Part shown: piece by piece, positions 2,651 through 64,000 of the stretch
Position numbering within the stretch: the first letter of the stretch is position 1
Layout of the letters: each line of letters opens with the position of its first letter
Assembly: GCA_026874595.1 (NCBI GenBank)
Contig: CM049316.1
Span: 18,191,839 to 18,255,838 of the forward strand
Source of the DNA: Sipunculus nudus
Taxonomy: Eukaryota; Annelida; Sipuncula; Golfingiida; Sipunculidae
Direction of reading: 5' to 3'
DNA: 64,000 nt
Notes under the pieces: generated by a model
What the model was told of the DNA's origin: nothing
The model's database searches: none
Seen by the model: the letters and a program-made list of their open reading frames with translations, nothing else
Program-made: the position numbers and the translations under genes

Positions 2651-3831
2651 TGTCTGTATGTACACGCTCTACAGGCCACAGTTTTTAAGCGATCGCTCTG
2701 AAACTTATGCATTAAGTGTAAGATTGGTTCTCCTCGGAGCCTATTGTTTTTGGTCATGATCGGTCAAAGGTCAAGGTCAGGGTCACCAAAAAACCTAAAA
2801 TTTTTACTTTCTTCATATCTTTGTCAATAATAATCGTATCCCCATAATCTGTAGCTCATTTTATTCCTCACTATGTTAGCTTTCCAAGTGCTGGCAAATT
2901 TTTCCGGTCAATGGTTACCATGGTAACGTATTTTGGGGGGAAATTCAGAAAATTCGAAAATTTCCCTCCAAATTTCTCATTATTCAAGTTAGAGAGGTCT
3001 AGTTTCTTGCAATGCATAGCATTTAATATGCTCTGTGCGAAATTAATGTAAGTCTCGCAAAATCTCGTGCCATTTGTCGTCAAATGAGACTTTTCGATAT
3101 TTCATTAAATACGATTTACAGGTGGCAGTTTTACAGCTAAGGTTCTGAAAGTGACATATTTTCTGTTGTTCTGTATTATCTCGAACTTGTTTTTTCATTT
3201 TTCGGAAATAGCCACCAGGGGGCGTGGTACTGGAAACACTACAACTTATCATTTTTCCGCAATATCTAAAAAAATATTAAGCATAGAACAATTTTTTTTT
3301 GTCGCATCTAAAATTAGGATCATTGCCTTATTCCTTCGTACATTTAGCCTTGTGCTGCCGTTACCATGGTTACCAAATTTTGGGGTAAAACTTGACAATC
3401 TGAAATACGGAGTGTTCCTGCTTCTGTCTCTGTCAATATTTGCGATAGAACGCTCTGGTTTTTGGCGTTAGATAGCATTAGTTTACTTCTTAGTCATTCA
3501 ATAGAAAGGCTCGTCATATCTCGCACCGTTTCTCGTGAAACGAGAACACGAGACCATTCAAAGAAATGCCTATAATTCTGTCATTTTTCACGCTACAGAC
3601 ACATGGTTTGCAGCGCTGGTTAGCGGCTGACACTCGCAGTCACATTCAGGGGTCACATTGTTAGTCTCGTCAAATCTCGCGCCGTTTTTCGCCATACCAC
3701 GAAGACACGTGCCGTCGCCGCAAGTGGCGGCAGGGTCCTTACGGTGGGCGGCCGGCGTGTGCAGCGGTGCGTGACGGCCTCTCCGGGCCCTATCTATTAT
3801 CATACATGTTGGAGGCACAGTCCTAACTTTA
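2629..3831 (+). repeat. A unit, first copy (A' variant start)
   Basis: First A-family unit of macro-repeat copy 1, opening with the half-hairpin start. Sequence order: microsatellite, 'aggccacag' box, half-site cluster, GTTACCATGGTAAC palindrome, TCTCG-rich stretch, CTCF-like GCCACCAGGGGGCG at 3,211-3,224, second palindrome, TCTCGT/ACGAGA dyad, then a GC-rich 3' part. Up to 3,582 it matches 16,337-17,350 and 23,580-24,532. After that it matches the 1,258-bp A array instead, so it is a mosaic of A' and A. Confidence 0.9.
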
Positions 3832-3833
3832 TT

Positions 3834-3863
3834 GCTTGCCGGAAATCTTCGATTTTCGCAAGC
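3834..3863 (+). repeat. Unit-opening hairpin (A type, representative)
   Basis: Left arm GCTTGCCGGAAATC, loop TTC, right arm GATTTTCGCAAGC, with one mismatch and one bulge. Every A unit begins this way. B units use GCTTGCCGGAATC, AGA, GATTTCGACAAGT. The best-paired versions are in the 55.3-55.6 kb modules and at 62,454-62,482. Confidence 0.8.
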
Positions 3864-4019
3864 ATGTTGATCAACCGCGTATGTTTGTTTGTTTGTTTGT
3901 CTGTCTGTTTGTCTGTATGTACACGCGCTAGAGGCCACAGTTTTTAAGCAATCGCTCTGAAACTTATACATAAACTGTAAGATCTGTTCTCCTCGGAGCC
4001 TATTGTTTTTGGTGATGAT

Positions 4020-4044
4020 CGGTCAAAGGTCAAGGTCAGGGTCA
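4020..4044 (+). promoter_or_regulatory. Tandem nuclear-receptor-like half-sites (A unit, representative)
   Basis: CGGTCA, one base, AGGTCA, AGGTCA, GGGTCA: four half-sites in the same direction, spaced DR1, DR0, DR0. Positions 4,030-4,038 read TCAAGGTCA, the extended half-site known for ERR/SF-1/FTZ-F1-type receptors. The cluster lies at the same place in every A unit and recurs in B, D, F and G units with slightly different spacing. Motif identity is read from the sequence; receptor binding is not shown. Confidence 0.4.
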
Positions 4045-4172
4045 CCAAAAAACCTAAAATCTTTATTTTCTTCATATCTTCGTCAATAATAATCGTAGCC
4101 GCATAATCTGTAACTCATTTTATTCCTCACTATGTTAGCTTTCCAAGTGCTGGCAAATTTTTCCGGTCAATG

Positions 4173-4186
4173 GTTACCATGGTAAC
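4173..4186. promoter_or_regulatory. X-box-like palindrome (A unit, representative)
   Basis: GTTACCATGGTAAC is a perfect 14-bp palindrome and fits the RFX X-box pattern GTNRCC(N0-3)RGYAAC. Each A unit has a second, imperfect copy GTTACCATGGTTAC (4,618-4,631 in this unit). Equivalent sites: B units 10,498-10,511 and 35,001-35,014; D units 55,881-55,894, 56,331-56,344, 58,907-58,920, 60,593-60,606 and 61,041-61,054; F unit GTAACCATGGTTAC at 62,788-62,801, again perfectly palindromic. Functional use is unproven. Confidence 0.4.
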
Positions 4187-4469
4187 GTATTTTGGGGGGA
4201 AAATCAGAAAATTCGAAAATTTCCCTCCAAATTTCTCATTTTTTAAGTTAGAGAGGCCTAGTTTTTTGCAATGCGTAGCATTTAATATGCTCTATGCGAA
4301 ATTAATGTAAGTCTCGCAAAATCTCGTGCCATGTGTCGTCAAATGGGACTTTTCGAGATTTCATTAAATACGATTTACAGGTCGCAGTTTTACAGCTAAG
4401 GTTCTGAAAGTGACACATTTTCTGTTGTTTTGTATTATCTCGAACTTGTTTTTTCATTTTTCGGAAATA

Positions 4470-4483
4470 GCCACCAGGGGGCG
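4470..4483 (+). promoter_or_regulatory. CTCF-like site, A type (representative)
   Basis: GCCACCAGGGGGCG equals the core of the vertebrate CTCF consensus. All 16 A-type copies start at 3,211, 4,470, 5,728, 6,986, 8,244, 9,502, 14,343, 15,601, 16,979, 18,306, 24,161, 25,548, 31,420, 32,682, 33,944 and 54,607, and all have the same orientation. The bases just upstream (GGAAATA, or GAAATTA at 18,306) and downstream (TGGTACTGG) are conserved too, so copying alone can explain conservation within this family. Confidence 0.45.
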
Positions 4484-4776
4484 TGGTACTGGAAACACTG
4501 TAACATATCATTTTTCCGCAATATCTAAAAAAATATTTAGCATATAACAATTTTTTTTGTCGCATCTAAAATTAGGATCATTGCCTTATTCCTTCGTACA
4601 TTTAGCCTTGTGCTGCCGTTACCATGGTTACCAAATTTTGGGGTAAAACTTGACAATCTGAAATACGGAGTGTTCCTGCTTCTGTCTCTGTCAATATTTG
4701 CGATAGAACGCTCTGGTTTTTGGCGTTAGATAGCATTAGTTTACTTCTTAGTCATTCAATAGAAAGGCTCGTCATA

Positions 4777-4811
4777 TCTCGCACCGTTTCTCGTGAAACG
4801 AGAACACGAGA
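4777..4811. promoter_or_regulatory. TCTCG/CGAGA dyad (A unit, representative)
   Basis: Half-sites TCTCGC, TCTCGT, ACGAGA, ACGAGA in order, the central pair forming a perfect inverted repeat around GAA. The same four-part arrangement occurs in B units (central pair TCTCGT and ATGAGA) and about ten times in each D unit. It could be a cruciform-prone element or a protein site. No known factor is assigned. Confidence 0.5.
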
Positions 4812-7800
4812 CCATTCAAAGAAATGCCTATAATTCTGTCATTTTTCACGCTACAGACACATGGTTTGCAGCGCTGGTTAGCGGCTGACACTCGCAGTCA
4901 CATTCAGGGGTCACATTGTTAGTCTCGTCAAATCTCGCGCCGTTTTTCGCCATACCACGAAGACACGTGCCGTCGCCGCAAGTGGCGGCAGGGTCCTTAC
5001 GGTGGGCGGCCGGCGTGTGCAGCGGTGCGTGACGGCCTCTCCGGGCCCTATCTATTATCATACATGTTGGAGGCACAGTCCTAACTTTATTGCTTGCCGG
5101 AAATCTTCGATTTTCGCAAGCATGTTGATCAACCGCGTATGTTTGTTTGTTTGTTTGTCTGTCTGTTTGTCTGTATGTACACGCGCTAGAGGCCACAGTT
5201 TTTAAGCAATCGCTCTGAAACTTATACATAAACTGTAAGATCTGTTCTCCTCGGAGCCTATTGTTTTTGGTGATGATCGGTCAAAGGTCAAGGTCAGGGT
5301 CACCAAAAAACCTAAAATCTTTATTTTCTTCATATCTTCGTCAATAATAATCGTAGCCGCATAATCTGTAACTCATTTTATTCCTCACTATGTTAGCTTT
5401 CCAAGTGCTGGCAAATTTTTCCGGTCAATGGTTACCATGGTAACGTATTTTGGGGGGAAAATCAGAAAATTCGAAAATTTCCCTCCAAATTTCTCATTTT
5501 TTAAGTTAGAGAGGCCTAGTTTTTTGCAATGCGTAGCATTTAATATGCTCTATGCGAAATTAATGTAAGTCTCGCAAAATCTCGTGCCATGTGTCGTCAA
5601 ATGGGACTTTTCGAGATTTCATTAAATACGATTTACAGGTCGCAGTTTTACAGCTAAGGTTCTGAAAGTGACACATTTTCTGTTGTTTTGTATTATCTCG
5701 AACTTGTTTTTTCATTTTTCGGAAATAGCCACCAGGGGGCGTGGTACTGGAAACACTGTAACATATCATTTTTCCGCAATATCTAAAAAAATATTTAGCA
5801 TATAACAATTTTTTTTGTCGCATCTAAAACTAGGATCATTGCCTTATTCCTTCGTACATTTAGCCTTGTGCTGCCGTTACCATGGTTACCAAATTTTGGG
5901 GTAAAACTTGACAATCTGAAATACGGAGTTTTCCTGCTTCTATCTCTGTCAATATTTGCGATAGAAAGCTCTGGTTTTTGGCGTTAGATAGCATTAGTTT
6001 ACTTCTTAGTCATTCAATAGAAAGTCTCGTCATATCTCGCACCGTTTCTCGTGAAACGAGAACACGGGACCATTCAAAGAAATGCCTATAATTCTGTCAT
6101 TTTTCACGCTACAGACACATGGTTTGCAGCGCTGGATAGCGGCTGACACTCGCAGTCACATTCAGGGGTCACATTGTTAGTCTCGTCAAATCTCGCGCCG
6201 TTTTTCGCCATACCACGAAGACACGTGCCGTCGCCGCAAGTGGCGGCAGGGTCCTTACGGTGGGCGGCCGGCGTGTGCAGCGGTGCGTGACGGCCTCTCC
6301 GGGCCCTATCTATTATCATACATGTTGGAGGCACAGTCCTAACTTTATTGCTTGCCGGAAATCTTCGATTTTCGCAAGCATGTTGATCAACCGCGTATGT
6401 TTGTTTGTTTGTTTGTCTGTCTGTTTGTCTGTATGTACACGCGCTAGAGGCCACAGTTTTTAAGCAATCGCTCTGAAACTTATACATAAACTGTAAGATC
6501 TGTTCTCCTCGGAGCCTATTGTTTTTGGTGATGATCGGTCAAAGGTCAAGGTCAGGGTCACCAAAAAACCTAAAATCTTTATTTTCTTCATATCTTCGTC
6601 AATAATAATCGTAGCCGCATAATCTGTAACTCATTTTATTCCTCACTATGTTAGCTTTCCAAGTGCTGGCAAATTTTTCCGGTCAATGGTTACCATGGTA
6701 ACGTATTTTGGGGGGAAAATCAGAAAATTCGAAAATTTCCCTCCAAATTTCTCATTTTTTAAGTTAGAGAGGCCTAGTTTTTTGCAATGCGTAGCATTTA
6801 ATATGCTCTATGCGAAATTAATGTAAGTCTCGCAAAATCTCGTGCCATGTGTCGTCAAATGGGACTTTTCGAGATTTCATTAAATACGATTTACAGGTCG
6901 CAGTTTTACAGCTAAGGTTCTGAAAGTGACACATTTTCTGTTGTTTTGTATTATCTCGAACTTGTTTTTTCATTTTTCGGAAATAGCCACCAGGGGGCGT
7001 GGTACTGGAAACACTGTAACATATCATTTTTCCGCAATATCTAAAAAAATATTTAGCATATAACAATTTTTTTTGTCGCATCTAAAACTAGGATCATTGC
7101 CTTATTCCTTCGTACATTTAGCCTTGTGCTGCCGTTACCATGGTTACCAAATTTTGGGGTAAAACTTGACAATCTGAAATACGGAGTTTTCCTGCTTCTA
7201 TCTCTGTCAATATTTGCGATAGAAAGCTCTGGTTTTTGGCGTTAGATAGCATTAGTTTACTTCTTAGTCATTCAATAGAAAGTCTCGTCATATCTCGCAC
7301 CGTTTCTCGTGAAACGAGAACACGGGACCATTCAAAGAAATGCCTATAATTCTGTCATTTTTCACGCTACAGACACATGGTTTGCAGCGCTGGATAGCGG
7401 CTGACACTCGCAGTCACATTCAGGGGTCACATTGTTAGTCTCGTCAAATCTCGCGCCGTTTTTCGCCATACCACGAAGACACGTGCCGTCGCCGCAAGTG
7501 GCGGCAGGGTCCTTACGGTGGGCGGCCGGCGTGTGCAGCGGTGCGTGACGGCCTCTCCGGGCCCTATCTATTATCATACATGTTGGAGGCACAGTCCTAA
7601 CTTTATTGCTTGCCGGAAATCTTCGATTTTCGCAAGCATGTTGATCAACCGCGTATGTTTGTTTGTTTGTTTGTCTGTCTGTTTGTCTGTATGTACACGC
7701 GCTAGAGGCCACAGTTTTTAAGCAATCGCTCTGAAACTTATACATAAACTGTAAGATCTGTTCTCCTCGGAGCCTATTGTTTTTGGTGATGATCGGTCAA

Positions 7801-10121
7801 AGGTCAAGGTCAGGGTCACCAAAAAACCTAAAATCTTTATTTTCTTCATATCTTCGTCAATAATAATCGTAGCCGCATAATCTGTAACTCATTTTATTCC
7901 TCACTATGTTAGCTTTCCAAGTGCTGGCAAATTTTTCCGGTCAATGGTTACCATGGTAACGTATTTTGGGGGGAAAATCAGAAAATTCGAAAATTTCCCT
8001 CCAAATTTCTCATTTTTTAAGTTAGAGAGGCCTAGTTTTTTGCAATGCGTAGCATTTAATATGCTCTATGCGAAATTAATGTAAGTCTCGCAAAATCTCG
8101 TGCCATGTGTCGTCAAATGGGACTTTTCGAGATTTCATTAAATACGATTTACAGGTCGCAGTTTTACAGCTAAGGTTCTGAAAGTGACACATTTTCTGTT
8201 GTTTTGTATTATCTCGAACTTGTTTTTTCATTTTTCGGAAATAGCCACCAGGGGGCGTGGTACTGGAAACACTGTAACATATCATTTTTCCGCAATATCT
8301 AAAAAAATATTTAGCATATAACAATTTTTTTTGTCGCATCTAAAACTAGGATCATTGCCTTATTCCTTCGTACATTTAGCCTTGTGCTGCCGTTACCATG
8401 GTTACCAAATTTTGGGGTAAAACTTGACAATCTGAAATACGGAGTTTTCCTGCTTCTATCTCTGTCAATATTTGCGATAGAAAGCTCTGGTTTTTGGCGT
8501 TAGATAGCATTAGTTTACTTCTTAGTCATTCAATAGAAAGTCTCGTCATATCTCGCACCGTTTCTCGTGAAACGAGAACACGGGACCATTCAAAGAAATG
8601 CCTATAATTCTGTCATTTTTCACGCTACAGACACATGGTTTGCAGCGCTGGATACCGGCTGACACTCGCAGTCACATTCAGGGGTCACATTGTTAGTCTC
8701 GTCAAATCTCGCGCCGTTTTTCGCCATACCACGAAGACACGTGCCGTCGCCGCAAGTGGCGGCAGGGTCCTTACGGTGGGCGGCCGGCGTGTGCAGCGGT
8801 GCGTGACGGCCTCTCCGGGCCCTATCTATTATCATACATGTTGGAGGCACAGTCCTAACTTTATTGCTTGCCGGAAATCTTCGATTTTCGCAAGCATGTT
8901 GATCAACCGCGTATGTTTGTTTGTTTGTTTGTCTGTCTGTTTGTCTGTATGTACACGCGCTAGAGGCCACAGTTTTTAAGCAATCGCTCTGAAACTTATA
9001 CATAAACTGTAAGATCTGTTCTCCTCGGAGCCTATTGTTTTTGGTGATGATCGGTCAAAGGTCAAGGTCAGGGTCACCAAAAAACCTAAAATCTTTATTT
9101 TCTTCATATCTTCGTCAATAATAATCGTAGCCGCATAATCTGTAACTCATTTTATTCCTCACTATGTTAGCTTTCCAAGTGCTGGCAAATTTTTCCGGTC
9201 AATGGTTACCATGGTAACGTATTTTGGGGGGAAAATCAGAAAATTCGAAAATTTCCCTCCAAATTTCTCATTTTTTAAGTTAGAGAGGCCTAGTTTTTTG
9301 CAATGCGTAGCATTTAATATGCTCTATGCGAAATTAATGTAAGTCTCGCAAAATCTCGTGCCATGTGTCGTCAAATGGGACTTTTCGAGATTTCATTAAA
9401 TACGATTTACAGGTCGCAGTTTTACAGCTAAGGTTCTGAAAGTGACACATTTTCTGTTGTTTTGTATTATCTCGAACTTGTTTTTTCATTTTTCGGAAAT
9501 AGCCACCAGGGGGCGTGGTACTGGAAACACTGTAACATATCATTTTTCCGCAATATCTAAAAAAATATTTAGCATATAACAATTTTTTTTGTCGCATCTA
9601 AAACTAGGATCATTGCCTTATTCCTTCGTACATTTAGCCTTGTGCTGCCGTTACCATGGTTACCAAATTTTGGGGTAAAACTTGACAATCTGAAATACGG
9701 AGTTTTCCTGCTTCTATCTCTGTCAATATTTGCGATAGAAAGCTCTGGTTTTTGGCGTTAGATAGCATTAGTTTACTTCTTAGTCATTCAATAGAAAGTC
9801 TCGTCATATCTCGCACCGTTTCTCGTGAAACGAGAACACGGGACCATTCAAAGAAATGCCTATAATTCTGTCATTTTTCACGCTACAGACACATGGTTTG
9901 CAGCGCTGGATAGCGGCTGACACTCGCAGTCACATTCAGGGGTCACATTGTTAGTCTCGTCAAATCTCGCGCCGTTTTTCGCCATACCACGAAGACATGT
10001 GCCGTCGCCGCAAGTGGCGGCAGGGTCCTTACGGTGGGCGGCCGGCGTGTGCAGCGGTGCGTGACGGCCTCTCCGGGCCCTATCTATTATCATACATGTT
10101 GGAGGCACAGTCCTAACTTTA

Positions 10122-10177: not shown

Positions 10178-10344
10178 TTGCTTGCCGGAATCAGAGATTT
10201 CGACAAGTATGTTGATCAGTTCCGTTTGTTTGTTTGTCTGTATGTCCTCGCTCTACAGGCCACAATTTTGCACCAATCGTCCTGAAACTTATCGATAGAG
10301 TGTATAATCGGTTCTTCTCGGAGCCTATTGTTTTTGGTCATGAT

Positions 10345-10369
10345 CGGTCAAGGGTCAAGGTCAGGGTCA
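10345..10369 (+). promoter_or_regulatory. Tandem nuclear-receptor-like half-sites (B unit, representative)
   Basis: CGGTCA, one base, GGGTCA, AGGTCA, GGGTCA, all in the same direction. The second half-site is GGGTCA here and AGGTCA in A units. The surrounding sequence (TATTGTTTTTGGTCATGAT upstream, CACCAAAAA downstream) is shared with A units. It repeats in all B units with the array period. Confidence 0.4.
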
Positions 10370-10636
10370 CCAAAAAGCTCAAAAACGGTTTTTTCTTCAT
10401 ACCTTCGTCAAAAATAGCCGTAGGCACCTAATCTGTAGCCCGTTTTATTTGCCACTGCATGGCCACTTCCAACACTGCAAAATTGCCTCATTTCGCTGTT
10501 ACCATGGTCACGCAATTTCGGGGTGAAATCATGGAATTTCGTGATATTTTCCAAATTTGCAGCAATTTTACTGATTCTGAGATATTTTATGCAACATAAG
10601 AATATCTCGAAATTGTTTTTTCAGATTTTGGAAATG

Positions 10637-10650
10637 GCCGCCAGGGGGCG
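10637..10650 (+). promoter_or_regulatory. CTCF-like site, B type 1 (representative)
   Basis: GCCGCCAGGGGGCG. Copies in this array start at 10,637, 11,901 and 13,165. In the second B array they start at 35,140 and every 1,274 bp through 52,976, giving 18 copies in total. Up to 40,236 the next bases are TTGCAG; from 41,510 onward they are TGGCAG. Confidence 0.45.
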
Positions 10651-11093
10651 TTGCAGATGAAAAAACATGAAAATTTGTTTTGGTGCTATACCTCCAGAAC
10701 TATTAAACATTGGGCCATTTCCATCACAGCACCTTAAACTAGGGTCCATGGGCTTATTTTTGCGCATAGGTGCCAAAGTGCGCTATTGCCAGATTTCTCT
10801 ATTTTTGGGGTAAAACTTTTGAATTTTGAAAATATGCAGTTTTCAGCTTCTAACTCTGTCAGTTTTTATGCTAGAGAGGTCAAAATTTTTGCATCTTGTA
10901 GCCCTTGGTGAGTTCTCGGTGATCCAACCAAAAATCTTGCAAAATCTCGCACCGTTTCTCGTCGAATGAGATTTCGCGATTTCACGGTGACATGCCCTAT
11001 AGGCCACAGATATGCAGGCATCCTTTTGAAACTGATACATGTTACGTCATACACTAATATCTCGAAAGCAATTGTTCAGTTTTTGGAAAATTA

Positions 11094-11109
11094 CCGCTAG
11101 GGGGCGCTG
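11094..11109 (+). promoter_or_regulatory. CTCF-like site, B type 2 (representative)
   Basis: CCGCTAGGGGGCGCTG, about 457 bp downstream of the type 1 site in the same unit and in the same orientation. Copies start at 11,094, 12,358 and then 35,597 plus multiples of 1,274 through 52,159 (16 in total). The truncated third unit of this array and the truncated last unit of the second array both lack it. Confidence 0.45.
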
Positions 11110-11310
11110 CACTGCGACCCCGTACCTACTATCATTGTTTAACCATATCTCCAAAACTACACATTATAGGTACATAAACTGTACACCATATGAATTGGCG
11201 TCTCATGGCCTTTCTGCCCATGACCTCTTTTGTTTAATCATACACGGTCCCCACAAATTTTAGCAACTTTGTAAAAATTAAAACCCGCATGCACAAATAC
11301 ATATGCCATC

Positions 11311-11328
11311 ACGCATGCATGCACGCGT
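11311..11328. other. Alternating purine-pyrimidine tract
   Basis: Eighteen bases of strict purine-pyrimidine alternation (ACGCATGCATGCACGCGT), a Z-DNA-prone pattern. It is present in the B units of the first array and the first four units of the second (e.g. 35,814-35,831). From the unit starting 39,777 onward a G-to-T change (GCATTCACG) breaks it. Confidence 0.6.
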
Positions 11329-13566
11329 TTGAGTATGAAAGACAGACACGCCTGCAAAAATTATAGCGTTCGCCGTATAAAATAAGTGACCACAGGCACT
11401 CTTTGCGGGCCGGTTTGCCATTTCTGTCGCGTTATAGTTTATTGCTTGCCGGAATCAGAGATTTCGACAAGTATGTTGATCAGTTCCGTTTGTTTGTTTG
11501 TCTGTATGTCCTCGCTCTACAGGCCACAATTTTGCACCAATCGTCCTGAAACTTATCGATAAAGTGTATAATCGGTTCTTCTCGGAGCCTATTGTTTTTG
11601 GTCATGATCGGTCAAGGGTCAAGGTCAGGGTCACCAAAAAGCTCAAAAACGGTTTTTTCTTCATACCTTCGTCAAAAATAGCCGTAGGCACCTAATCTGT
11701 AGCCCGTTTTATTTGCCACTGCATGGCCACTTCCAACACTGCAAAATTGCCTCATTTCGCTGTTACCATGGTCACGCAATTTCGGGGTGAAATCATGGAA
11801 TTTCGTGATATTTTCCAAATTTGCAGCAATTTTACTGATTCTGAGATATTTTATGCAACATAAGAATATCTCGAAATTGTTTTTTCAGATTTTGGAAATG
11901 GCCGCCAGGGGGCGTTGCAGATGAAAAAACATGAAAATTTGTTTTGGTGCTATACCTCCAGAACTATTAAACATTGGGCCATTTCCATCACAGCACCTTA
12001 AACTAGGGTCCATGGGCTTATTTTTGCGCATAGGTGCCAAAGTGCGCTATTGCCAGATTTCTCTATTTTTGGGGTAAAACTTTTGAATTTTGAAAATATG
12101 CAGTTTTCAGCTTCTAACTCTGTCAGTTTTTATGCTAGAGAGGTCAAAATTTTTGCATCTTGTAGCCCTTGGTGAGTTCTCGGTGATCCAACCAAAAATC
12201 TTGCAAAATCTCGCACCGTTTCTCGTCGAATGAGATTTCGCGATTTCACGGTGACATGCCCTATAGGCCACAGATATGCAGGCATCCTTTTGAAACTGAT
12301 ACATGTTACGTCATACACTAATATCTCGAAAGCAATTGTTCAGTTTTTGGAAAATTACCGCTAGGGGGCGCTGCACTGCGACCCCGTACCTACTATCATT
12401 GTTTAACCATATCTCCAAAACTACACATTATAGGTACATAAACTGTACACCATATGAATTGGCGTCTCATGGCCTTTCTGCCCATGACCTCTTTTGTTTA
12501 ATCATACACGGTCCCCACAAATTTTAGCAACTTTGTAAAAATTAAAACCCGCATGCACAAATACATATGCCATCACGCATGCATGCACGCGTTTGAGTAT
12601 GAAAGACAGACACGCCTGCAAAAATTATAGCGTTCGCCGTATAAAATAAGTGACCACAGGCACTCTTTGCGGGCCGGTTTGCCATTTCTGTCGCGTTATA
12701 GTTTATTGCTTGCCGGAATCAGAGATTTCGACAAGTATGTTGATCAGTTCCGTTTGTTTGTTTGTCTGTATGTCCTCGCTCTACAGGCCACAATTTTGCA
12801 CCAATCGTCCTGAAACTTATCGATAAAGTGTATAATCGGTTCTTCTCGGAGCCTATTGTTTTTGGTCATGATCGGTCAAGGGTCAAGGTCAGGGTCACCA
12901 AAAAGCTCAAAAACGGTTTTTTCTTCATACCTTCGTCAAAAATAGCCGTAGGCACCTAATCTGTAGCCCGTTTTATTTGCCACTGCATGGCCACTTCCAA
13001 CACTGCAAAATTGCCTCATTTCGCTGTTACCATGGTCACGCAATTTCGGGGTGAAATCATGGAATTTCGTGATATTTTCCAAATTTGCAGCAATTTTACT
13101 GATTCTGAGATATTTTATGCAACATAAGAATATCTCGAAATTGTTTTTTCAGATTTTGGAAATGGCCGCCAGGGGGCGTTGCAGATGAAAAAACATGAAA
13201 ATTTGTTTTGGTGCTATACCTCCAGAACTATTAAACATTGGGCCATTTCCATCACAGCACCTTAAACTAGGGTCCATGGGCTTATTTTTGCGCATAGGTG
13301 ACAAAGTGCGCTATTGCCAGATTTCTCTATTTTTGGGGTAAAACCTTTGAATTTTGAAAATATGCAGTTTTCAGCTTCTAACTCTGTCAGTTTTTATGCT
13401 AGAGAGGTCAAAATTTTTGCATCTTGTAGCCCTTGGTGAGTTCTCGGTGATCCAACCAAAAATCTTGCAAAATCTCGCACCGTTTCTCGTCGAATGAGAT
13501 TTCGCGATTTCACGGTGACATGCCCTATAGGCCACAGATATGCAGGCATCCGTTTGAAACTGATAC

Positions 13567-16220: not shown

Positions 16221-16336
16221 TTGCTTGCCGGAAATCTTCGATTTTCGCAAGCATGTTGATCACCCGCGTATGTTTGTTTGTTGCTTGCCGGAAATCTTCG
16301 ATTTTCGCAAGTATGTTGATCACCCGCGTATGTTTG
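16221..16336 (+). repeat. Tandem hairpin modules (60 and 56 bp)
   Basis: Two extra copies of the opening hairpin plus GTTT stretch, at 16,221 and 16,281, before the hairpin that opens the next unit at 16,337. The hairpin module has been amplified independently of the unit body. The reading of the right flank changes from 'gatcaacc' to 'gatcaccc' here. Confidence 0.92.
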
Positions 16337-17599: not shown

Positions 17600-17659
17600 T
17601 TGCTTGCCGGAAATCTTCGATTTTCGCAAGTATGTTGATCACCCGCGTATGTTTGTTTG
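17600..17659 (+). repeat. Single extra hairpin module
   Basis: One 60-bp hairpin module before the next unit. At the matching place in macro-repeat copy 2 there are two extra modules (24,782-24,901). Confidence 0.9.
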
Positions 17660-55226: not shown

Positions 55227-55606
55227 TTGCTTGCCGGAAATCTTCGATTTTCGCAAGCATGTTGATCACCCGCGTATGTTTGTTTGTTGCTTGCCGGAAA
55301 TCTTCGATTTCCGCAAGCATGTTCGTCAGTTGCGTATGTCTGTTTGTCTCTTTGTCTGTTTGTTTGTTGCTTGCCGGAAATCTTCGATTTCGGCAAGCAT
55401 GTTCGTCAGTTGCGTATGTCTGTTTGTCTCTTTGTCTGTTTGTTTGTTGCTTGCCGGAAATCTTCGATTTCGGCAAGCATGTTCGTCAGTTGCGTATGTC
55501 TGTTTGTCTCTTTGTTTGTTTGTTTGTTGCTTGCCGGAAATCTTCGATTTCGGCAAGCATGTTCGTCAGTTGCGTATGTCTGTTTGTCTCTTTGTTTGTT
55601 TGTTTG
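55227..55606 (+). repeat. Hairpin-module tandem array (60-bp and 80-bp modules)
   Basis: Modules start at 55,227 (60 bp), 55,287, 55,367 and 55,447 (80 bp each), and 55,527, which runs into a longer GTTT stretch. From 55,367 on the arms pair almost perfectly: left GCTTGCCGGAAATC, loop TTC, right GATTTCGGCAAGC, a 13-bp stem with one bulged G. Spacer bases change from GATCACCCGCG to CGTCAGTTGCG in the second module. The open frames across this array simply translate the microsatellite. Confidence 0.95.
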
Positions 55607-57291
55607 TTTGTTTGTTTGTTTGTTTGTCACGACTCTCCAGGTCACACTTTTGCATCAATCAACTTGAAACTTACAGGCTTGTTTGACAAACCGATTTCTA
55701 GGTGCCCTATTGTTTTTGGTCAACATTGCTCCAAGGTCAAGGGTCAAGGTCACGACAGGTATGGTTAACGGTTTTTGCACTATAACTTCGCCATAAATAG
55801 GCTTATCCACTTCTGCAATAGCTCATTTTTTTCGTCATCACCTGGCCTTTCTTTTGACATGTAGCTTACTTAAATTTGCCGTTACCATGGTTACATTTTT
55901 TGGGCAAAAATCACGGAAATTGGAAATAACACGACCATTTTTTGTAACTTTGTCAGTTTTTAAGCTAGGCAGATCTAGTTTTCGGCATTTTGTTCCACAT
56001 GACCAGCTTGACACGACAAAACTGAAAGTCTCACCAAATCTCGCGCCATATCTCGTCAAACAAGAAAAAAAACGAGACTTCGCGGAAATGCTTATAACTC
56101 GGCGACTTTTACAGCTAGACAGGTCTGGTTTTCGGCATTTCGTTCTACCAAACAAGCTTGACACGACAGAGCTGCAAGACAGGCCAAATCTCGCACCGTA
56201 TCTCGTCAAACGAGAAAACACGGGATTTCACGGAAATGCTTATAACTGGGCCAGTTTTACAGCTAGACACGTCTGGTTTTCGGCATTTAGTTCCACTAGA
56301 CAAGCTTGACACGACAGATATGCAAGTGCCGTTACCATGGTTACATTTTTTGGGCAAAAATCATGGAAATTGGAAATAACACGACCATTTTTTTGTAACT
56401 TTGTCAGTTTTTAAGCTAGGCAGATCTAGTTTTCAGCATTTTGTTCCACATGACCAGCTTGACACGACAGAACTGAAAGTCACGCCAAATCTCGCGCCAT
56501 ATCTCGTTAAACGAGAAAAAACGAGACTTCGCGGAAATGCTTATAACTCGGCGACTTTTACAGCTAGACAGGTCTGGTTTTCGGCATTTCTTTCCACCAA
56601 ACAAGCTTGACACGACAGATCTGCAAGACAGGCCAAATCTCGCACCATATCTCGTCAAACGAGAAAACACGGGATTTCACGGAAATGCTTATAACTGGGC
56701 CAGTTTTACAGCTAGACACGTCTGGTTTTCGGCATTTAGTTCCACTAGACCAGCTTGACACGACAGATATGCAAGTCTGGCAAAATCTCGCACCCTATCT
56801 CGTCAAACGAGAAAACACGAGATTTCACGGAAATGCTTATAACTCGGCGAGTTTTACAGCTAGACAGGTCTAGTTTTCGGCATTTTGTTTCACATGCCCT
56901 GCTGGACATGACAGAATTGAAAATCAGGCCGAATGTCGCACCGTATCTCGTCAAACGAGAAAACATGAGATTTCACGGCATTGGTTATAACTCGGCGAGT
57001 TTTACAGATAGACACGTCTGGTTTTCGGCATTTTGTTCCACTAGACCAGCTTGACACGACAGACATGAATGTCAGGCTAAATCTCGCACCGTATCCCGTC
57101 AAACGAGAAAACACGAGATTTCACGGAACTGCAGCTAGACAGGTCTAGTTTTCAGCATTTAGTTCCACATGACCTGCTTGACATGACAGAACTCCAATTC
57201 AGGCACAATCTCGCACCGTATCTCGTCAAACGAGAAAACACGAGATTTCAGGGAAACGCTGATATCTCGGCGAGTTTTACAGCTAGACAGG
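55607..57291 (+). repeat. D unit 1 with 148-bp core array
   Basis: Starts with CACGACTCTCCAGGTCACAC, a half-site cluster near 55,732-55,751 and X-box-like sites at 55,881 and 56,331. Ten diverged cores follow, each with 'cagttttacagctagac', a 'ttcggcatttt' box and the TCTCG dyad. Dyads start at 56,051, 56,201, 56,502, 56,650, 56,798, 56,946, 57,094 and 57,221. Most intervals are 148 bp; the 301-bp interval spans the inserted X-box segment and the last interval is 127 bp. There is no CTCF-like site in this unit. Confidence 0.9.
56786..56822. promoter_or_regulatory. TCTCG/ACGAGA four-half-site dyad (D core, representative)
   Basis: TCTCGC (56,786), TCTCGT (56,798), ACGAGA (56,807), ACGAGA (56,817). 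The central pair is a perfect inverted repeat around CAA, the right pair is offset by 10 bp, and the left pair by 12 bp. The whole block is roughly dyad-symmetric. It is the best-conserved part of the 148-bp core; intervening sequence varies more. Confidence 0.55.
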
Positions 57292-58140
57292 TCTAGTTTG
57301 TTTGTCAGTACTCTCCTGGGCACAATTTTCCAGCAATCGCCCTGAAACTTGCACAGCTGGTAGAAATTTCCAAATCCTGGAAGCCTATTCTTTTTGGGCA
57401 ATATAGGTCAGAGGTCAAGGTCAAGGTCGGCCAAAAACCTTGAAATTCTATTTTCTTCATAACTTTATCAAATTTGGTCTTATCTTCACAATCTTAGGCT
57501 CATTTTCTTCTTCTTGGTCTTCCCCACAACTTTTGTAAGGCCGTCTTTTGTGTCAGATGTGTCACTTAGTCAGTATTTCTGTCTCTTTGTCAGCTGTCCT
57601 CATTTTCGCCTTCTTGCTGGTTCTTTTGTCTTACATATAGCACTACAAAGGCCACAATTTTACAGCAACCGCTTTAAAACTTACAGAGATCATGGAAGAC
57701 CAAACGTTCTGCATGCCTTTTTTGTCAATATCTGCCACAAGTCAACGTCAAGATCATCAAAAAATTTTGAAATGTTATTTTCGTCATAACTTTGACAATT
57801 TTAATCCTATCTTCACAATCTTAGGCTCATTTTCTTCCGCTTGGTCTTCCCCACAACTTTTGTAAGGCCAACTTTTGTCTCAGATTCGTCACTTTGTCAG
57901 TATTTCTGTCTCTTTGTCAGCTCTCCTAAATTTTGCCTCTTAGCTGGTCCTTGTCTTAAATAAAACATTATACAGGCCACAGTTTCGCAGGAATCTATTT
58001 TAACTGATACATCTGATACATCTTGCACTAATATCTCGAAAAGAATTTTTCATTTTTGGAAAATAGCCGCTAGGGGCTCCTTTTCAGGGTCTTTGTCTTG
58101 GTTATGACATGTTCTTGTTATTCTACCAATCTGGGTCAAA
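57292..58140 (+). repeat. G segment: diverged cassette with two 328-bp repeats
   Basis: Begins TTTGTTTGTCAGTACTCTCC, then AGGTCA-type half-sites at 57,405-57,429 (AGGTCA, one base, AGGTCA, AGGTCA, AGGTCG). Two E-like repeats follow; 'cacaatcttaggctcatttt' occurs at about 57,488 and 57,816, 328 bp apart. A degenerate CTCF-like sequence (GCCGCTAGGGGCTCC) lies near 58,066. No gene recognised. Confidence 0.75.
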
Positions 58141-60276
58141 GTATTTCCGGCAAGCGCGTGACCTCTGGTCGTCTTGTTTGTTTGTTTGTTTGTTTGTTTG
58201 TTTGTCACGACTCTCCAGGTCACACTTTTGCATCAATCAACTTGAAACTTACAGGCTTGATTGACAAACCGATTTCTAGGTGCCCTATTGTTTTTGGTCA
58301 ACATTGCTCCAAGGTCAAGGGTCAAGGTCACGACAGGTATGGTTAACGGTTTTTGCACTATAACTTCGCCATAAATAGGCTTATCCACTTCTGCAATAGC
58401 TCATTTTTTTCGTCATCACCTGGCCTTTCTTTTGACATGTAGCTTACTTAAATTTGCCATTACCATGGTTACATTTTTTCGGCAAAAATCACGGAAATTG
58501 GAAATAACACGACCATTTTTTGTAACTTTGTCAGTTTTTAAGCTAGGCAGATCTAGTTTTCGGCATTTTGTTCCACATGACCAGCTTGACACGACAGAAC
58601 TGAAAGTCACGCCAAATCTCGCGCCATATCTCGTCAAACGAGAAAAAACGAGACTTCCCGGAAATGCTTATAACTCGGCGACTTTTACAGCTAGACAGGT
58701 CTGGTTTTCGGCATTTCGTTTCACCAAACAAGCTTGACACGACAAAGCTGCAAGACAGGCCAAATCTCGCACCGTATCTCGTCAAACGAGAAAACACGGG
58801 ATTTCACGGAAATGCTTATAACTGGGCCAGTTTTACAGCTAGACACGTCTGGTTTTCGGCATTTAGTTCCACTAGACCAGCTTGACACGACAGATATGCA
58901 AGTGCCGTTACCATGGTTACATTTTTTGGGCAAAAATCATGGAAATTGGAAATAACACGACCATTTTTTGTAACTTTGTCAGTTTTTAAGCTAGGCAGAT
59001 CTAGTTTTCGGCATCTTGTTCCACATGACCAGCTTGACAGGACAGAACTGAAAGTCACGCCAAATCTCGCGCCATATCTCGTCAAACGAGAAAAAACTAG
59101 ACTTCGCGGAAATGCTTATAACTCGGGGACTTTTACAGCTAGACAGGTCTGGTTTTCGGCATTTCGTTCAACCAAACAAGCTTGACACGACAGAGCTGCA
59201 AGACAGGCCAAATCTCGCACCGTATCTCGTCAAACGAGAAAACACGGGATTTCACGGATATGCTTATAGCTGGGCCAGTTTTACAGCTAGACACGTCTGG
59301 TTTTCGGCATTTAGTTCCACTAGACCAGCTTGACATGACAGATATGCAAGTCTGGCAAAATCTCGCACCGTATCTCGTCAAACGAGAAAACACGAAATTT
59401 CACGGAAATGCATATAACTCGGCCAGTTTTACAGCTAGACAGGTCTGGTTTCCGGCATTTCCTTCCAAATGACCAGCTTGACACGATTGATGTGCAAGTC
59501 AGGCCAAATCTCGCACCCTATCTCGTCAAACGAGAAAACACGAGATTTCACGGAAATGCTTATAACTCGGTGAGTTTTACAGCTAGACAGGTCTAGTTTT
59601 CGGCATTTTGTTTCACATGACCCGCTGGACATGACAGAACTGAAAGTCAGGCCGAATGTCGCACCGTATCTCGTCAAACGAGAAAACATGAGATTTCACG
59701 GCATTGGTTATAACTCGGCGAGTTTTACAGAAAGACACGTCTGGTTTTCGGCATTTTGTTCCACTAGACCAGCTTGACACGACAGACATGCATGTCAGGC
59801 AAAACCTCGCACCGTATCCCGTCAAACGAGAAAACACGAGATTTCATGGAACTGCAGCTAGACAGGTCTAGTTTCCGGCATTTTGTAATATTTGACAAAC
59901 CTGACATGACAAAACTGGAAATCTCGCCAAAGCTCGCACCATTTCCCGTCAAACGAGAAAACACGAGATTTCATGCAAATGCTTATAACTCAGCGGCTTT
60001 TATAGCTAGACAGGTCTAGTTTTCGGCATTTCATATCATTTGGCCAGCTTGGCATGACAAACCTGAAAACGTCTCACTGCTTCTTGTCAAACGAGATTAA
60101 CGGGATTTCATGAAAAAATTTTGAACTTGGTCCCTTTTACACTAGAAAGATATGCAGCTGTTAAAGGTCAGCATGCATAAATAAACATATTATCCGTTTC
60201 TGCTGCCCCCACAATGTTGCTCATTCATATGACTGTTTCTACATGCACTCTCTGTCTATCTGTCTGTATCATTTCC
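58141..60276 (+). repeat. D unit 2 with 148-bp core array
   Basis: Half-hairpin start at about 58,144 with the stem TGACC/GGTCG and CTTG instead of CTAG, then a six-fold GTTT run. Dyads start at 58,629, 58,777, 59,077, 59,225, 59,373, 59,521, 59,669, 59,817 and 59,944. The intervals are 148, 300, 148, 148, 148, 148, 148 and 127 bp, the same rhythm as D1 and D3. X-box-like sites at 58,459 (one base off) and 58,907. It ends with a CATGCATAAATAAAC segment and a short TCTG stretch. Confidence 0.93.
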
Positions 60277-62406
60277 ATTTCCGGCAAGCGCGTGACCTCT
60301 GGTCATCTTGTTTGTTTGTTTGTTTGTTTGTTTGTTTGTCACGACTCTCCAGGTCACACTTTTGCATCAATCAACTTGAAACTTACAGGCTTGATTGACA
60401 AACCGATTTCTAGGTGCCCTATTGTTTTTGGTCAACATTGCTCCAAGGTCAAGGGTCAAGGTCACGACAGGTATGGTTAACGGTTTTTGCACTATAACTT
60501 CGCCATAAATAGGCTTATCCACTTCTGCAATAGCTCATTTTTTTCGTCATCACCTGGCCTTTCTTTTGACATGTAGCTTACTTTAATTTACCGTTACCAT
60601 GGTTACATTTTTTGGGCAAAAATCATGGAAATTGGAAATAACACGACCATTTTTTGTAATTTTGTCAGTTTTTAAGCTAGGCAGATCTAGTTTTCGGCAT
60701 TTTGTTCCACATGACCAGCTTGACACGACAGAACTGAAAGTCACGCCAAATCTCGCGCCATATCTCGTCAAACGAGAAAAAACGAGACTTCGCGGAAATG
60801 CTTATAACTCGGCGACTTTTACAGCTAGACAGGTCTGGTTTTCGGCATTTCGTTCCACCAAACAAGCTTGACACGACAGAGCTGCAAGACAGGCCAAATC
60901 TCGCACCGTATCTCGTCAAACGAGAAAACACGGGATTTCACGGAAATGCTTATAACTGGGCCAGTTTTACAGCTAGACATGTCTGGTTTTCGGCATTTAG
61001 TTACACTAGACCAGCTTGACACGACAGATATGCAAGTGCCGTTACCATGGTTACATTTTTTGGGCAAAAATCATGGAAATTGGAAATAACACGACCATTT
61101 TTTGTAACTTTGTCAGTTTTTAAGCTAGGCAGATCTAGTTTTCGGCATTTTGTTTCACATGACCAGCTTGACACGACAGAACTGAAAGTCACGCCAAATC
61201 TCGCGCCATATCTCGTCAAACGAGAAAAAACGAGACTTCGCGGAAATGCTTATAACTCGGCGACTTTTATAGCTAGACAGGTCTGGTTATCGGCATTTCG
61301 TTCCACCAAACAAGCTTGACACGACAGAGCTGCAAGACAGGCCAAATCTCGCACCGTATCTCGTCAAACGAGAAAACACGGGATTTCACGGAAATGCTTA
61401 TAACTGGGCCAGTTTTACAGCTAGACACGTCTGGTTTTCGGCATTTAGTTCCACTAGAAAAGCTTGACACGACAGATATGCAAGTCTGGCAAAATCTCGC
61501 GCCATATCTCGTCAAACGAGAAACACGAAATTTCACGGAAATGCTTATAACTCGGCCAGTTTTACAGCTAGACACGTCTGGTTTCCGGCATTTCCTTCCA
61601 CATGACCAGCTTGACACGATAGATGTACAAGTCAGGCCAAATCTCGCACCCTATCTCGTCAAACGAGAAAACACGAGATTTCACGGAAATGCTTATAACT
61701 CGGCGAGTTTTACAGCTGGACAGGTCTAGTTTTCGGCATTTTGTTTCACATGTCCTGCTGGACATGACAGAACTGGAAGTCAGGCCGAATGTCGCACCGT
61801 ATCTCGTCAAACGAGAAAACATGAGATTTCACGGCATTGGTTATAACTCGGCGAGTGTTACAGATAGACACGTCTGGTTTTCGGCATTTTGTTCCACTAG
61901 ACCAGCTTGACACGACAGACATGCATGTGAGGCAAAATCTCGCACCGTATCCCGTCAAACAAGAAAACACGAGATTTCACGGAACTGCAGCTAGACAGGT
62001 CTAGTTTTCGGCATTTAGTTCCACATGACCCGCTTGACATGACAGAACTCCAAGTCAGGCACAAGCTCGCACCATTTCCCGTCAAACGAGAAAACACGAG
62101 ATTTCATGCAAATGCTTATAACTCAGCGGCTTTTATAGCTAGACAGGTCTAGTTTTCGGCATTTCATATCATTTGGCCAGCTTGACATGACAAACCTGAA
62201 AACGTGTCACTGCTTCTTGTCAAACGAGATTAACGGGATTTCATGAAAAAATTTTGAACTTGGTCCCTTTTACACTAGAAAGATATGCAGCTGTTAAGGG
62301 TCAGCATGCATAAATAAACATATTATCCGTTTCTGCTGCCCCCACAATGTTGCTCATTCATATGACTGTTTCTTCATGCACTCTCTGTCTGTCTGTCTCT
62401 ATCATT
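60277..62406 (+). repeat. D unit 3 with 148-bp core array
   Basis: Offset about 2,134 bp from D2, and closely similar including the 3' CATGCATAAATAAAC segment. Dyads start at 60,763, 60,911, 61,211, 61,359, 61,507, 61,654, 61,802, 61,950 and 62,077. One interval is 147 bp because an A is missing after the dyad at 61,507. X-box-like sites at 60,593 and 61,041. Confidence 0.93.
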
Positions 62407-63010
62407 TCCATTTCCGGCAAGCGCGTGACCTCTGGTCATCTTGTATGTTTGTTGCTTGCCGGAATCAAAGATTTCGGCAAGCATATTGGTCAGTTGCGTA
62501 TGTCTGTTTGTCTGTCTGTTTGTTTGTTTGTTTGTCACCACTCTCCTGGCCACAATTTTGCCACAATAACCTTGAAACTTACAGGGATGTTGGAAAATAT
62601 AATTTCTAGGTGCCCTATTGTTTTTGGTTAAAATAGGTCAAAGGTCAAGGTCAAGGTCGTCAAAACTTCTCAAAATGGTTTTTTCTTCATATCTTTGTGA
62701 CTATTAGTCGTATCTACTTCAACAATAGCTCATTTTAATCGTCATTCCAAGGCCTGTCATCTGGTGTGTAGCTGACTCAAATTTGCCGTAACCATGGTTA
62801 CAATTTTTTGGGGAAAAGTCATGATATTCGAAAATAAGGGATCTTATTTTTCTAACTTTGTCAGTTTTAAAGCTAGAGTGATCTAGTTTTCTGCATCAGG
62901 TAGCATTCAACTAGTACTACAAGATTTTATTACAAGTCTTGCAGTATCTCGTAAAATTTCTCGTGAATAGAGATATTTCGAGATTTCATTCATCTTGCGC
63001 CAAAGGCCAC
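62407..63010 (+). repeat. F unit (half-hairpin start plus full hairpin, single copy)
   Basis: Contains both boundary types in sequence: the half-hairpin start (stem 62,426-62,438) and, 13 bp later, a full hairpin at 62,454-62,482 with a 13-bp stem containing one G-T pair. Then come a GTCT/GTTT stretch, half-sites near 62,636-62,658, and the perfect palindrome GTAACCATGGTTAC at 62,788-62,801. A TCTCGT-rich stretch near 62,945 follows. It is the most diverged full cassette here and the best outgroup for judging motif conservation. Confidence 0.8.
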
Positions 63011-64000
63011 ATTATTGCAGGAATCTTTTTGAAACTGACATATCATAAGTCCTACACTAGTATCTCGAAATTGTTTTTTCATTTTTTGAATATGGCTGCT
63101 AGGGGGCGCTGCACACGACCCTCACACAGATATCATTACATTGGCCATATCTCTAAAACCCAAAGCCTCAATTACATAAACTATAGCTTATTTTTTCCCT
63201 CTGAGTCTTCTCCATAAACTGATAATGTCATCTGATCTCAATGTTGTGTCACTTTGTCATTGTGTCCGTCTGTTTGTCAGTTGTCCTCAAATTCGCCTGC
63301 TTGCTCTTGCGTCTCACATATAGCATTCTACAGGCCACAGTTTTGAAAGAATCCTTTTGAAACTATTACATCTTAAGTCTTGCACTAATATCTCGAAACC
63401 AATTTTTCATTTTCCGGATATGGCCGCTAGGGGGCGCTGAACTCGAACCTCTCCCAACATATCATGCTTTGGCAATATCTCCAAAACTATAAACCTCAGT
63501 TACATAAACTGTAGCTTTTTTCTTCCTTTGAGTCTTCTCCATAACCTGGAGAAGTCATCTGGACTCAATTTTGAGTCACTTTGTCAGTGTTTTCGTCTGT
63601 TTGTCAGTTGTCCTCAAATTCGCCTGCTTGTTGGCTCTTGCGTCTCACATATAAGCATTCTGTAGGCCACAGTTTTGACGGAATCCTTTTGAAACTATTA
63701 CATCTTATGTCTTACACTAATATCTAGAAATAAATTTTTCATTTTCCGCATATGGCCACTAGTGGGCGCTGCACATGACTGTCACACACATACCATTGTA
63801 TTGGCCATAACTCTACACCCAAAGCCTCAGTTACATAAGCTATAGCTTATTTTCTTCCTTTGAGTCTTCTCCATAGCCTGATTAAGGCATCTGGTTTCAA
63901 TCTTCTGTCACTTTGTCAGTGTGTCCATCTGTTTGTCCGTTATCCTCAAAGTCGCCTGCTTGCTGGTTCTTACGCCTTACATAGAGCATTCTACAGGCCA
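63011..64000 (+). repeat. E repeats, about 330 bp (three units, running off the window)
   Basis: CTCF-like sites at 63,096-63,111 (CTGCTAGGGGGCGCTG), 63,424-63,439 (CCGCTAGGGGGCGCTG) and 63,756-63,771 (CCACTAGTGGGCGCTG), 328 and 332 bp apart. Between them lie 'tcagttgtcctcaaattcgc' and 'aggccacagttttg' boxes. The units differ from each other by many substitutions, so they are older than the A and B arrays. The array continues past 64,000. Confidence 0.88.

What the first reader, a model, noticed from the sequence alone, without database searches (positions are those of the whole stretch)
3211..63771. About 55 CTCF-like sites, all in one orientation, built into tandem repeats
GCCACCAGGGGGCG (16 copies), GCCGCCAGGGGGCG (18), CCGCTAGGGGGCGCTG (16) and five E-type variants all match the known CTCF core consensus and all lie on the + strand. 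Counting copies within one array proves nothing, but the motif is also kept at the corresponding place in diverged families (A, B, E) whose flanking sequence differs. A 60-kb one-directional block of such sites would be a very unusual chromatin element if bound. Binding is inference.
Basis: partly seen in the sequence, partly recalled or inferred. Interest (0 to 1): 0.75.

Follow-up and report, generated by a model that had tools for sequence, protein, structure and literature searches.

The report
One-way CTCF-like sites in Helentron arrays
A 60-kb block of nested, tandemly copied rolling-circle transposons carries 55 close copies of a sequence resembling the binding site of the chromosome-folding protein CTCF, all pointing the same way; the shared direction can be explained by how these transposons copy and insert, while whether CTCF binds there is untested.

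Summary
In detail: 55 CTCF-like cores on the + strand, none on the - strand: 16 in family A, 18 B1, 16 B2, 5 E-type. One further copy, at 58067, is broken. The motif sits at the same place in modules whose flanks are 44-85% alike (seven lineages). It is the slowest-evolving 19-column window in three of four lineage sets and ties with an upstream box in the fourth, which includes the broken copy. The block is not an anonymous satellite: it is nested, tandem non-autonomous Helentrons (HINE / DINE-1-like), with 5' subTIR, inverted repeat, TTTG/TGTC microsatellite, 3' subTIR, palindrome, and insertion into relatives' microsatellites shown by empty sites. All element landmarks tested point one way. 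Tandem amplification, plus TT target steps that lie almost only on the + strand of these microsatellites, can account for that, so one-directionality is not evidence of insulator function. The nearest functional parallel is the DXZ4 macrosatellite. CTCF binding, the species, and the presence of a CTCF gene could not be tested; the genome search did not complete.

The parts
2629..10118 (+). A-type array 1: six ~1258-bp monomers, one CTCF-like core each (core base at 3216, 4475, 5733, 6991, 8249, 9507)
10178..13568 (+). B-type array 1: period 1264 bp, two cores per full monomer (10642, 11098, 11906, 12362, 13170); right end (about 13568, by eye) runs into an A tail
13569..17659 (+). A-type array 2 (cores 14348, 15606, 16984) with 5' ends at 13705, 14963, 16221, 16281, 16337, 17600
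17660..23578 (+). A2X-1, HINE of 5919 bp with both ends, inserted in an A microsatellite; core 18311; internal 365-bp tandem array
   Evidence: joined flanks 100% identical over 100 bp to uninterrupted A copies at 16352 and 33317
23579..24901 (+). A copy (core 24166), read as the right half of the A element interrupted by A2X-1, with stacked 5' ends at 24782 and 24842
   Evidence: the pairing is inferred
24902..30837 (+). A2X-2, second HINE with both ends, 5936 bp, 95.6% identical to A2X-1; core 25553
   Evidence: (joined flanks 99% to 32055-32154)
30838..34680 (+). A-type array 3 (cores 31425, 32687, 33949)
34681..54024 (+). B element, 19,344 bp: fifteen 5' ends, one 3' end, period 1274 bp; 15 B1 cores (35145-52981), 14 B2 cores (35601-52163), E1 53254, E2 53585; inserted in an A microsatellite
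   Evidence: (12 full-length uninterrupted hits, the six printed all 98%)
54025..55286 (+). A copy (core 54612), read as the right half of the A element interrupted by the B element
   Evidence: the pairing is inferred
55287..62443 (+). C block: four stacked 5' ends (55287, 55367, 55447, 55527) then three [body + 3' end] units ending 58176, 60310, 62443; 148-bp subunits; no intact core, one broken core at 58067
62452..64000 (+). D/E element (runs off the window): 5' end 62452, cores 63100, 63428, 63760 in ~332-bp modules
6953..7002 (+). Example of the conserved composite box: ATCTCGAA, about 30 bp, then the CTCF-like 19-mer (6984-7002); spacing 38 bp (38 sites) or 39 bp (16 sites), variants ATCTAGAA and ATCTCAAA counted
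34681..34716 (+). Example of HINE 5' end (B type): subTIR GCTTGCCGGAATC with an imperfect inverted repeat; TTGCTTGCCGGAA occurs 44 times on +, 0 on -
53991..54024 (+). Example of HINE 3' end: subTIR ATTTCCGGCAAGC, palindrome TGACCTCAGGTCA, terminal CTAG, followed by T; 7 such ends on +, 0 on -
3932..4122 (+). Example of the 5' module: profile-detected relative of the core-bearing module, with an AGGTCA half-site cluster where the core sits in the others

Best explanation
The block is a nest of non-autonomous rolling-circle transposons (HINE, Helentron type) of at least four related families (A, B, C, D/E). Modules of a few hundred bases inside them appear to share one ancestor and hold a protein-site-like motif in the same slot: a CTCF-like core in one type, an AGGTCA half-site cluster in the other. 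Shown: the HINE anatomy, empty sites for three insertions into relatives' microsatellites, and conservation of the core together with a box 38-39 bp upstream. Inferred: copies were amplified by rolling-circle or tandem events that multiply 5' ends without 3' ends; and insertion into TTTG microsatellites, whose TT steps lie on one strand, makes a new copy take its host copy's direction. The 55 one-way CTCF-like sites follow from that. Inferred with moderate weight: the core was kept because a CTCF-like zinc-finger protein of the host binds it; where bound, the block would act as a one-way bank of loop anchors, as at DXZ4.
For: HINE substructures present as defined in PMC7492417 and PMC4067079. 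Empty sites: three elements, joined 100-mers 100, 99 and 98% identical to uninterrupted A copies; 0 of 300 random joins at each of the three separations reach 97%. Landmarks + only: 5' ends 44/0, 3' ends 7/0, ATATCTCGAA 37/0, CCTATTGTTTTTGGT 38/0. In 22 TGYY runs of 24 nt or more: TT 208 times, AA 0, 2 runs without TT; in 35 bp after each of 44 5' ends: TT 335, AA 16. Nested order of ends (A(C(C(C(Cn)n)n)(D. Core slowest or tied-slowest window; fixed spacing to the left box in 54 of 55 sites. A profile with the motif masked recovers 55 of 55 cores and one module with a broken core. Change count falls with matrix information, rho -0.45, permutation p 0.024 (asymptotic 0.053); base changes milder than random, p 0.026. 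Same slot in related modules.
Against: No binding data; species unknown, so even the presence of CTCF is unknown. Position 6 of the recalled matrix is G in 38 of 55 sites. The upstream box is conserved as well as the core in the 7-lineage identity count (0.854 against 0.851) and ties with it when the broken copy is added, so the conserved thing may be a ~57-bp unit that CTCF does not explain. Besides F, a module start at 53813 has no core in its slot and may have lost one. The 3' palindrome folds no better than shuffles in the two copies folded. A monomers outside A2X and all B units but the last lack a 3' end, so the amplification route is inferred. The four kinds of insertion (A2X, B, C, D) in one direction could also be chance at about 1 in 16 (my arithmetic).
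Confidence: 0.72

Rival explanations
1. Neutral passenger: the core is just part of a slowly changing or gene-converted stretch of the transposon module; its likeness to the CTCF site is inherited from one ancestral module and no protein binds it.
For: The lineages descend from one module, so the likeness needs to have arisen once. The left flank is also conserved (0.69 against 0.53 on the right, 7 lineages). Within-array invariance is ordinary: 8% (A), 41% (B1) and 54% (B2) of 19-bp windows are invariant. A broken core (F) is carried along.
Against: 13-19 changes in the core against means of 34-50 in other windows; 2 of 258 windows match it in one of four lineage sets, none in the other three. 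Changes tend to fall at low-information CTCF positions.
Confidence: 0.4
2. Selected chromatin element: the host keeps a 60-kb one-way bank of CTCF sites as a boundary or hinge, as with mammalian DXZ4/Dxz4.
For: Tandem monomers with one-way CTCF-like motifs, as at Dxz4 (14 copies in mouse, an estimated 10-100 in human; PMC5899087, passages); there too conservation centres on the motif (PMC3491370, abstract and one section).
Against: Orientation can be explained by the transposons; the array is a patchwork of mobile copies with a near-identical duplication (2649 of 2651 columns); no evidence of occupancy or of conservation of the locus in another species.
Confidence: 0.12
3. Element's own signal: the composite box (ATCTCGAA, ~30 bp, GGGGGCG core) is read by the Helentron machinery or another zinc-finger host factor, not by CTCF.
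For: The upstream box is as conserved as the core and at fixed spacing; position 6 departs from the recalled CTCF preference in 38 of 55 sites.
Against: The Helentron signals described are terminal (PMC4067079, passages); the C family was copied with no intact core.
Confidence: 0.2

Closest known systems
HINE / DINE-1-like non-autonomous Helentrons with central tandem repeats (oyster Cg_HINE; bivalve Pearl elements, seen only as mentioned there)
   Same: 5' subTIR plus inverted repeat, tetranucleotide microsatellite, internal tandem repeats, 3' subTIR plus palindrome, T-rich/TT target without duplication, no coding capacity found
   Different: units of ~1.26 kb beside short ones, against a mean of 165 bp in oyster; a CTCF-like core in most units; elements sit inside relatives' microsatellites in one direction
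Helitron tandem arrays with many 5' ends and a single 3' end (plant Helitrons, Xiong et al. 2016, seen only as described in PMC12628747)
   Same: the B element has fifteen 5' ends and one 3' end
   Different: Helentron-type ends; CTCF-like cores
DXZ4/Dxz4 CTCF macrosatellite of mammals
   Same: tandem kilobase-scale monomers, CTCF-like motif in each, one orientation (in mouse), motif among the most conserved parts
   Different: here built from transposons, 55 sites of eight lineages, two cores per B monomer, no binding data, species or chromosome
CTCF sites spread by transposable elements in mammals (PMC9902604, PMC7520972, PMC11221086: search listing and abstract starts only)
   Same: mobile elements carrying a CTCF-like core
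   Different: Helentrons; clustered and one-way rather than dispersed

Membership tests
HINE / DINE-1-like Helentron | 5' subTIR of about 11 bp or more with a nearby complementary inverted repeat | tested here: met
   GCTTGCCGGAAAT / ATTTTCGCAAGC; 44 copies of TTGCTTGCCGGAA; two folded 5' ends z -3.2 and -5.9; B-type repeat imperfect
HINE / DINE-1-like Helentron | microsatellite after the 5' end and internal tandem repeats | tested here: met
   TTTG/TGTC runs and 148-, 332-, 365-bp arrays; 1258-, 1264-, 1274-bp periods
HINE / DINE-1-like Helentron | 3' subTIR followed by a palindrome near the 3' end | tested here: met
   7 copies: ATTTCCGGCAAGC (4) or ACTTCCGGCAAGC (3), then GACCTCWGGTC, then CTWG. 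As a fold the palindrome is not better than shuffles in the 2 copies tested
HINE / DINE-1-like Helentron | T-rich/TT target, no target-site duplication, empty sites | tested here: met
   three elements; control 0 of 900 random joins. Repeat-rich flanks leave the exact base uncertain
HINE / DINE-1-like Helentron | autonomous Rep/helicase partner in the genome | not testable with these tools
   genome search unreachable; longest stop-to-stop frame in the window 249 aa; no Pfam match above cut-off in two stretches tested in six frames
CTCF binding site | match to the CTCF core | tested here: met
   55 sites of 16.1-24.9 bits on a recalled matrix
CTCF binding site | base preference at every high-information position | tested here: inconclusive
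   position 6 is G in 38 of 55 sites, A in 17; D has T at position 5 and E4 T at position 11, both rare in the matrix; matrix is vertebrate and recalled
CTCF binding site | occupied by CTCF in vivo, CTCF gene present | not testable with these tools
   species unknown; no ChIP data
DXZ4-type CTCF macrosatellite | kilobase-scale tandem monomers with CTCF motifs in one orientation | tested here: met
   (motif likeness, not binding)
DXZ4-type CTCF macrosatellite | conservation restricted to the CTCF motif | tested here: inconclusive
   core is slowest or tied-slowest, but an upstream box is equally kept
DXZ4-type CTCF macrosatellite | X-linked next to PLS3, CTCF-bound on the inactive X | not testable with these tools
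   no genomic context beyond the window

The most novel reading that the evidence does not exclude
A family of animal Helentrons has evolved to carry a CTCF site in a fixed slot of its modules and to insert into its own kind's microsatellites in one direction, so that its spread builds ever longer one-way banks of CTCF anchors: a self-assembling, transposon-made counterpart of DXZ4 that shapes loop extrusion in an invertebrate.
Probability: 0.15. Interest if true: 0.9.

Novelty: new variant of a known kind. Interest (0 to 1): 0.55.

Why it matters
Whether CTCF sites act directionally outside vertebrates is open; two reviews of spiralian genomes say direct evidence is lacking or very limited (PMC10658181, PMC10658182, passages). 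If the source is a bilaterian with CTCF, a natural bank of 55 one-way sites would be an unusually clean test: it should leave a one-sided stripe in Hi-C. It would also show transposon copying and target choice, not selection, building such a bank. In the library searched I found no paper holding both Helentron and CTCF (0 papers); two hold Helitron and CTCF binding site, on pig SINEs and vertebrate transposons by title and abstract start.

Tried and rejected
Rejected: known RNA family or tRNA-derived SINE (no hits at gathering scores; no tRNA). Rejected for the parts tested: coding transposon (searched two stretches in six frames, with one sub-threshold Pfam match, DarT, E 0.066, 13.4 bits against a cut-off of 22.5). 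Rejected as evidence: within-array invariance of the motif. Relatives elsewhere: an exact composite pattern in viral contigs gave 2 matches that, by eye over the parts read, share nothing else with the modules; in prokaryote genomes 0; one 997-base query in phage records 0. Exact patterns would miss diverged relatives, and none of these collections is meant to hold animal genomes. The species could not be named; TTTG/TGTC microsatellites and AGGTCA repeats recall molluscs to me, but that is memory, not a test. First idea that the motif is the single most conserved block: softened, since it ties with the upstream box in two ways of counting.
Full report
OBSERVATION. The counts were repeated by script: 16 GCCACCAGGGGGCG, 18 GCCGCCAGGGGGCG, 18 CCGCTAGGGGGCGCTG (16 of them in family B2), AGGGGGCG 54 on + and 0 on -. 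With the single AGTGGGCG copy there are 55 sites; a recount by family agrees. A recalled vertebrate CTCF matrix scores the 55 between 16.1 and 24.9 bits (maximum possible 29.1). No - strand site reaches 10 bits; 200 simulated 64-kb sequences gave a mean of 0.225 sites >=16 bits, the best single chance site 21.1 bits.

WHAT THE BLOCK IS. The order of landmarks shows transposon ends throughout: 44 copies of a 5' end (TTGCTTGCCGGAA..., with a complementary inverted repeat; two copies folded at z -3.2 and -5.9) followed by TTTG/TGTC microsatellite, and 7 copies of a 3' end (subTIR complementary to the 5' one, palindrome GACCTCWGGTC, CTAG or CTTG). This is the anatomy given for HINE / DINE-1-like Helentrons (PMC7492417, Results section read; PMC4067079, passages). 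Three elements, 17660-23578, 24902-30837 and 34681-54024, lie inside the microsatellite of an A-type relative. Their flanks joined give 100-mers 100, 99 and 98% identical to uninterrupted A copies; 0 of 300 random joins at each separation reach 97%. Because all A microsatellites are alike, this test fixes the element ends and the kind of target, not which left flank belongs to which right flank. The first two elements are 95.6% identical and may descend from one insertion by duplication. No coding capacity was found: longest stop-to-stop frame 249 aa; no Pfam match above cut-off in two stretches.

WHY ALL SITES POINT ONE WAY. The landmarks tested are + only: 5' ends 44/0, 3' ends 7/0, CCTATTGTTTTTGGT 38/0, ATATCTCGAA 37/0. 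Helentrons prefer to insert within TT (PMC4067079, PMC7492417). In 22 TGYY runs of 24 nt or more TT occurs 208 times and AA (TT on the other strand) never; 2 runs hold no TT; in the 35 bp starting 45 bp into each of the 44 5' ends the counts are 335 and 16. So a copy entering such a run has to take its host's direction. That inference is mine; it predicts stacked 5' ends followed by stacked [body + 3' end] units, and the C block shows four 5' ends, then three bodies with 3' ends, then a D element that runs off the window. The missing fourth 3' end could lie beyond the window; that is not shown. The B element, with fifteen 5' ends and one 3' end, fits the many-5'-one-3' arrays reported for Helitrons (Xiong et al. 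2016 as told in PMC12628747, passages). Insertion of Helitron-like elements into microsatellites has been reported in Lepidoptera (Coates et al. 2010, seen only as a title in a reference list), so that part is not new.

IS THE CORE CONSTRAINED? Modules around the cores were aligned, one to three copies per family. Outside the motif, pairs among seven lineages are 44-85% identical, and down to 37% with E1 and F. Changes in the 19 motif columns against other 19-column windows: 7 lineages, 13 against mean 34.4, minimum 16, 0 of 241 as low; with E1, 14 against 42.9, minimum 22, 0 of 256; with the broken copy F, 18 against 43.0, minimum 18, 2 of 258 as low; with both, 19 against 50.5, minimum 27, 0 of 264. 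Windows overlap, so these are ranks, not independent tests. By pairwise identity over 15 columns a box ACTAATATCTCGAAA scores 0.854 and the core 0.851 (mean 0.57). The two lie at a fixed distance: 38 bp (38 sites) or 39 bp (16 sites), 54 of 55; E1 lacks the box; of 53 boxes found by exact search, 52 have a core and one (F) does not. To limit choosing sites by the motif, a profile of seven of these lineages with the motif masked was run on the window: 103 hits, of which 55 cover the 55 cores, 34 are 5' modules and 14 are others. Of the 14, one is F with its broken core; one (13529-13568) is cut off before the slot; one (53813-53874, E 1.5e-5) is a module start with no core in its slot, which may have lost one; the other eleven have E-values of 0.011 or more. 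So 55 of 56 or 57 core-type modules that reach the slot keep the core. Changes fall at low-information matrix positions (rho -0.45, permutation p 0.024, asymptotic p 0.053; 3.5% of other offsets as low) and are milder than random ones (p 0.026): weak support. Within arrays: A 0 variable of 19 (4.4 expected), B1 1 (2.4), B2 0 (0.5), but invariant 19-bp windows make up 8, 41 and 54% of each: not evidence by itself.

A SLOT. The masked profile hit the 5' modules too (best 6e-9; those printed mostly 1e-8 to 2e-5). They share the layout GGCCACA...TGAAACTT... Of 45 module starts found by pattern, 38 carry an AGGTCA-type cluster at offset 88 (35) or 94 (3), 4 carry the core at offset 95, and 3 carry neither; the 16 B2 modules, whose start the pattern missed, have the core at 96. 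Among four 5' modules (A-D) the most conserved blocks are CCTATTGTTTTTGGT (1.00), the microsatellite and the AGGTCA cluster (0.92) and GTTACCATGGTAAC (0.87). So the modules keep several protein-site-like motifs, of which the CTCF-like core is one. The names nuclear-receptor half-site and RFX X-box for these are recalled, not tested.

HOW IT MOST LIKELY WORKS. Shown: HINE nest, insertion into relatives' microsatellites, conserved core with fixed-distance box. Inferred: one-way orientation through TT on one strand and tandem amplification (about 0.8). Inferred with less weight: the core is or was bound by CTCF or a like zinc-finger protein (about 0.4). Not shown: any effect on chromatin.

WHAT IS KNOWN. 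Dxz4 has CTCF motifs in tandem orientation, 14 in mouse and an estimated 10-100 in human, and in mouse contacts follow their direction (PMC5899087, passages; the same passages say human DXZ4 has two sets in opposite orientation). Conservation there centres on the motif (PMC3491370, abstract and one section). CTCF orthologs are reported in molluscs, annelids and rotifers, and flatworms appear to lack it (PMC10658182, passages). [quoted passage not shown] A search for Helentron with CTCF gave 0 papers.

VERDICT. A new variant of a known kind: HINE arrays that carry a conserved CTCF-like core. Interest 0.55.

Noticed in passing
1-2650 and 20951-23600: Near-identical segments (2649 of 2651 aligned columns), while the two complete A2X elements, which hold the second and third copies, are 95.6% identical: a recent 21-kb duplication or an assembly duplication.
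   Followed up: partly
GTWACCATGGTWAC, 52 places in the window: X-box-like palindrome in 5' modules of several families, among their most conserved blocks.
   Followed up: partly
38 of 45 module starts, e.g. 3932-4122: AGGTCA half-site cluster in the slot that holds the CTCF-like core in the related modules.
   Followed up: yes
19994-21301 and 26800-28568: 365-bp tandem repeat (3.6 and 4.8 copies) inside the two complete A2X elements; copy number differs between otherwise 95.6% identical elements.
   Followed up: no
55954-62165: 148-bp subunits with TCTCGTCAAACGAGA-like inverted repeats in higher-order units of about 448 and 2134 bp.
   Followed up: no
about 53232-53260: Apparent junction of a B module into an E module just left of the E1 core; the core is intact although its left box is absent.
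   Followed up: partly
53813-53908: Module start with no core in its slot, possibly a second lost core besides F.
   Followed up: partly
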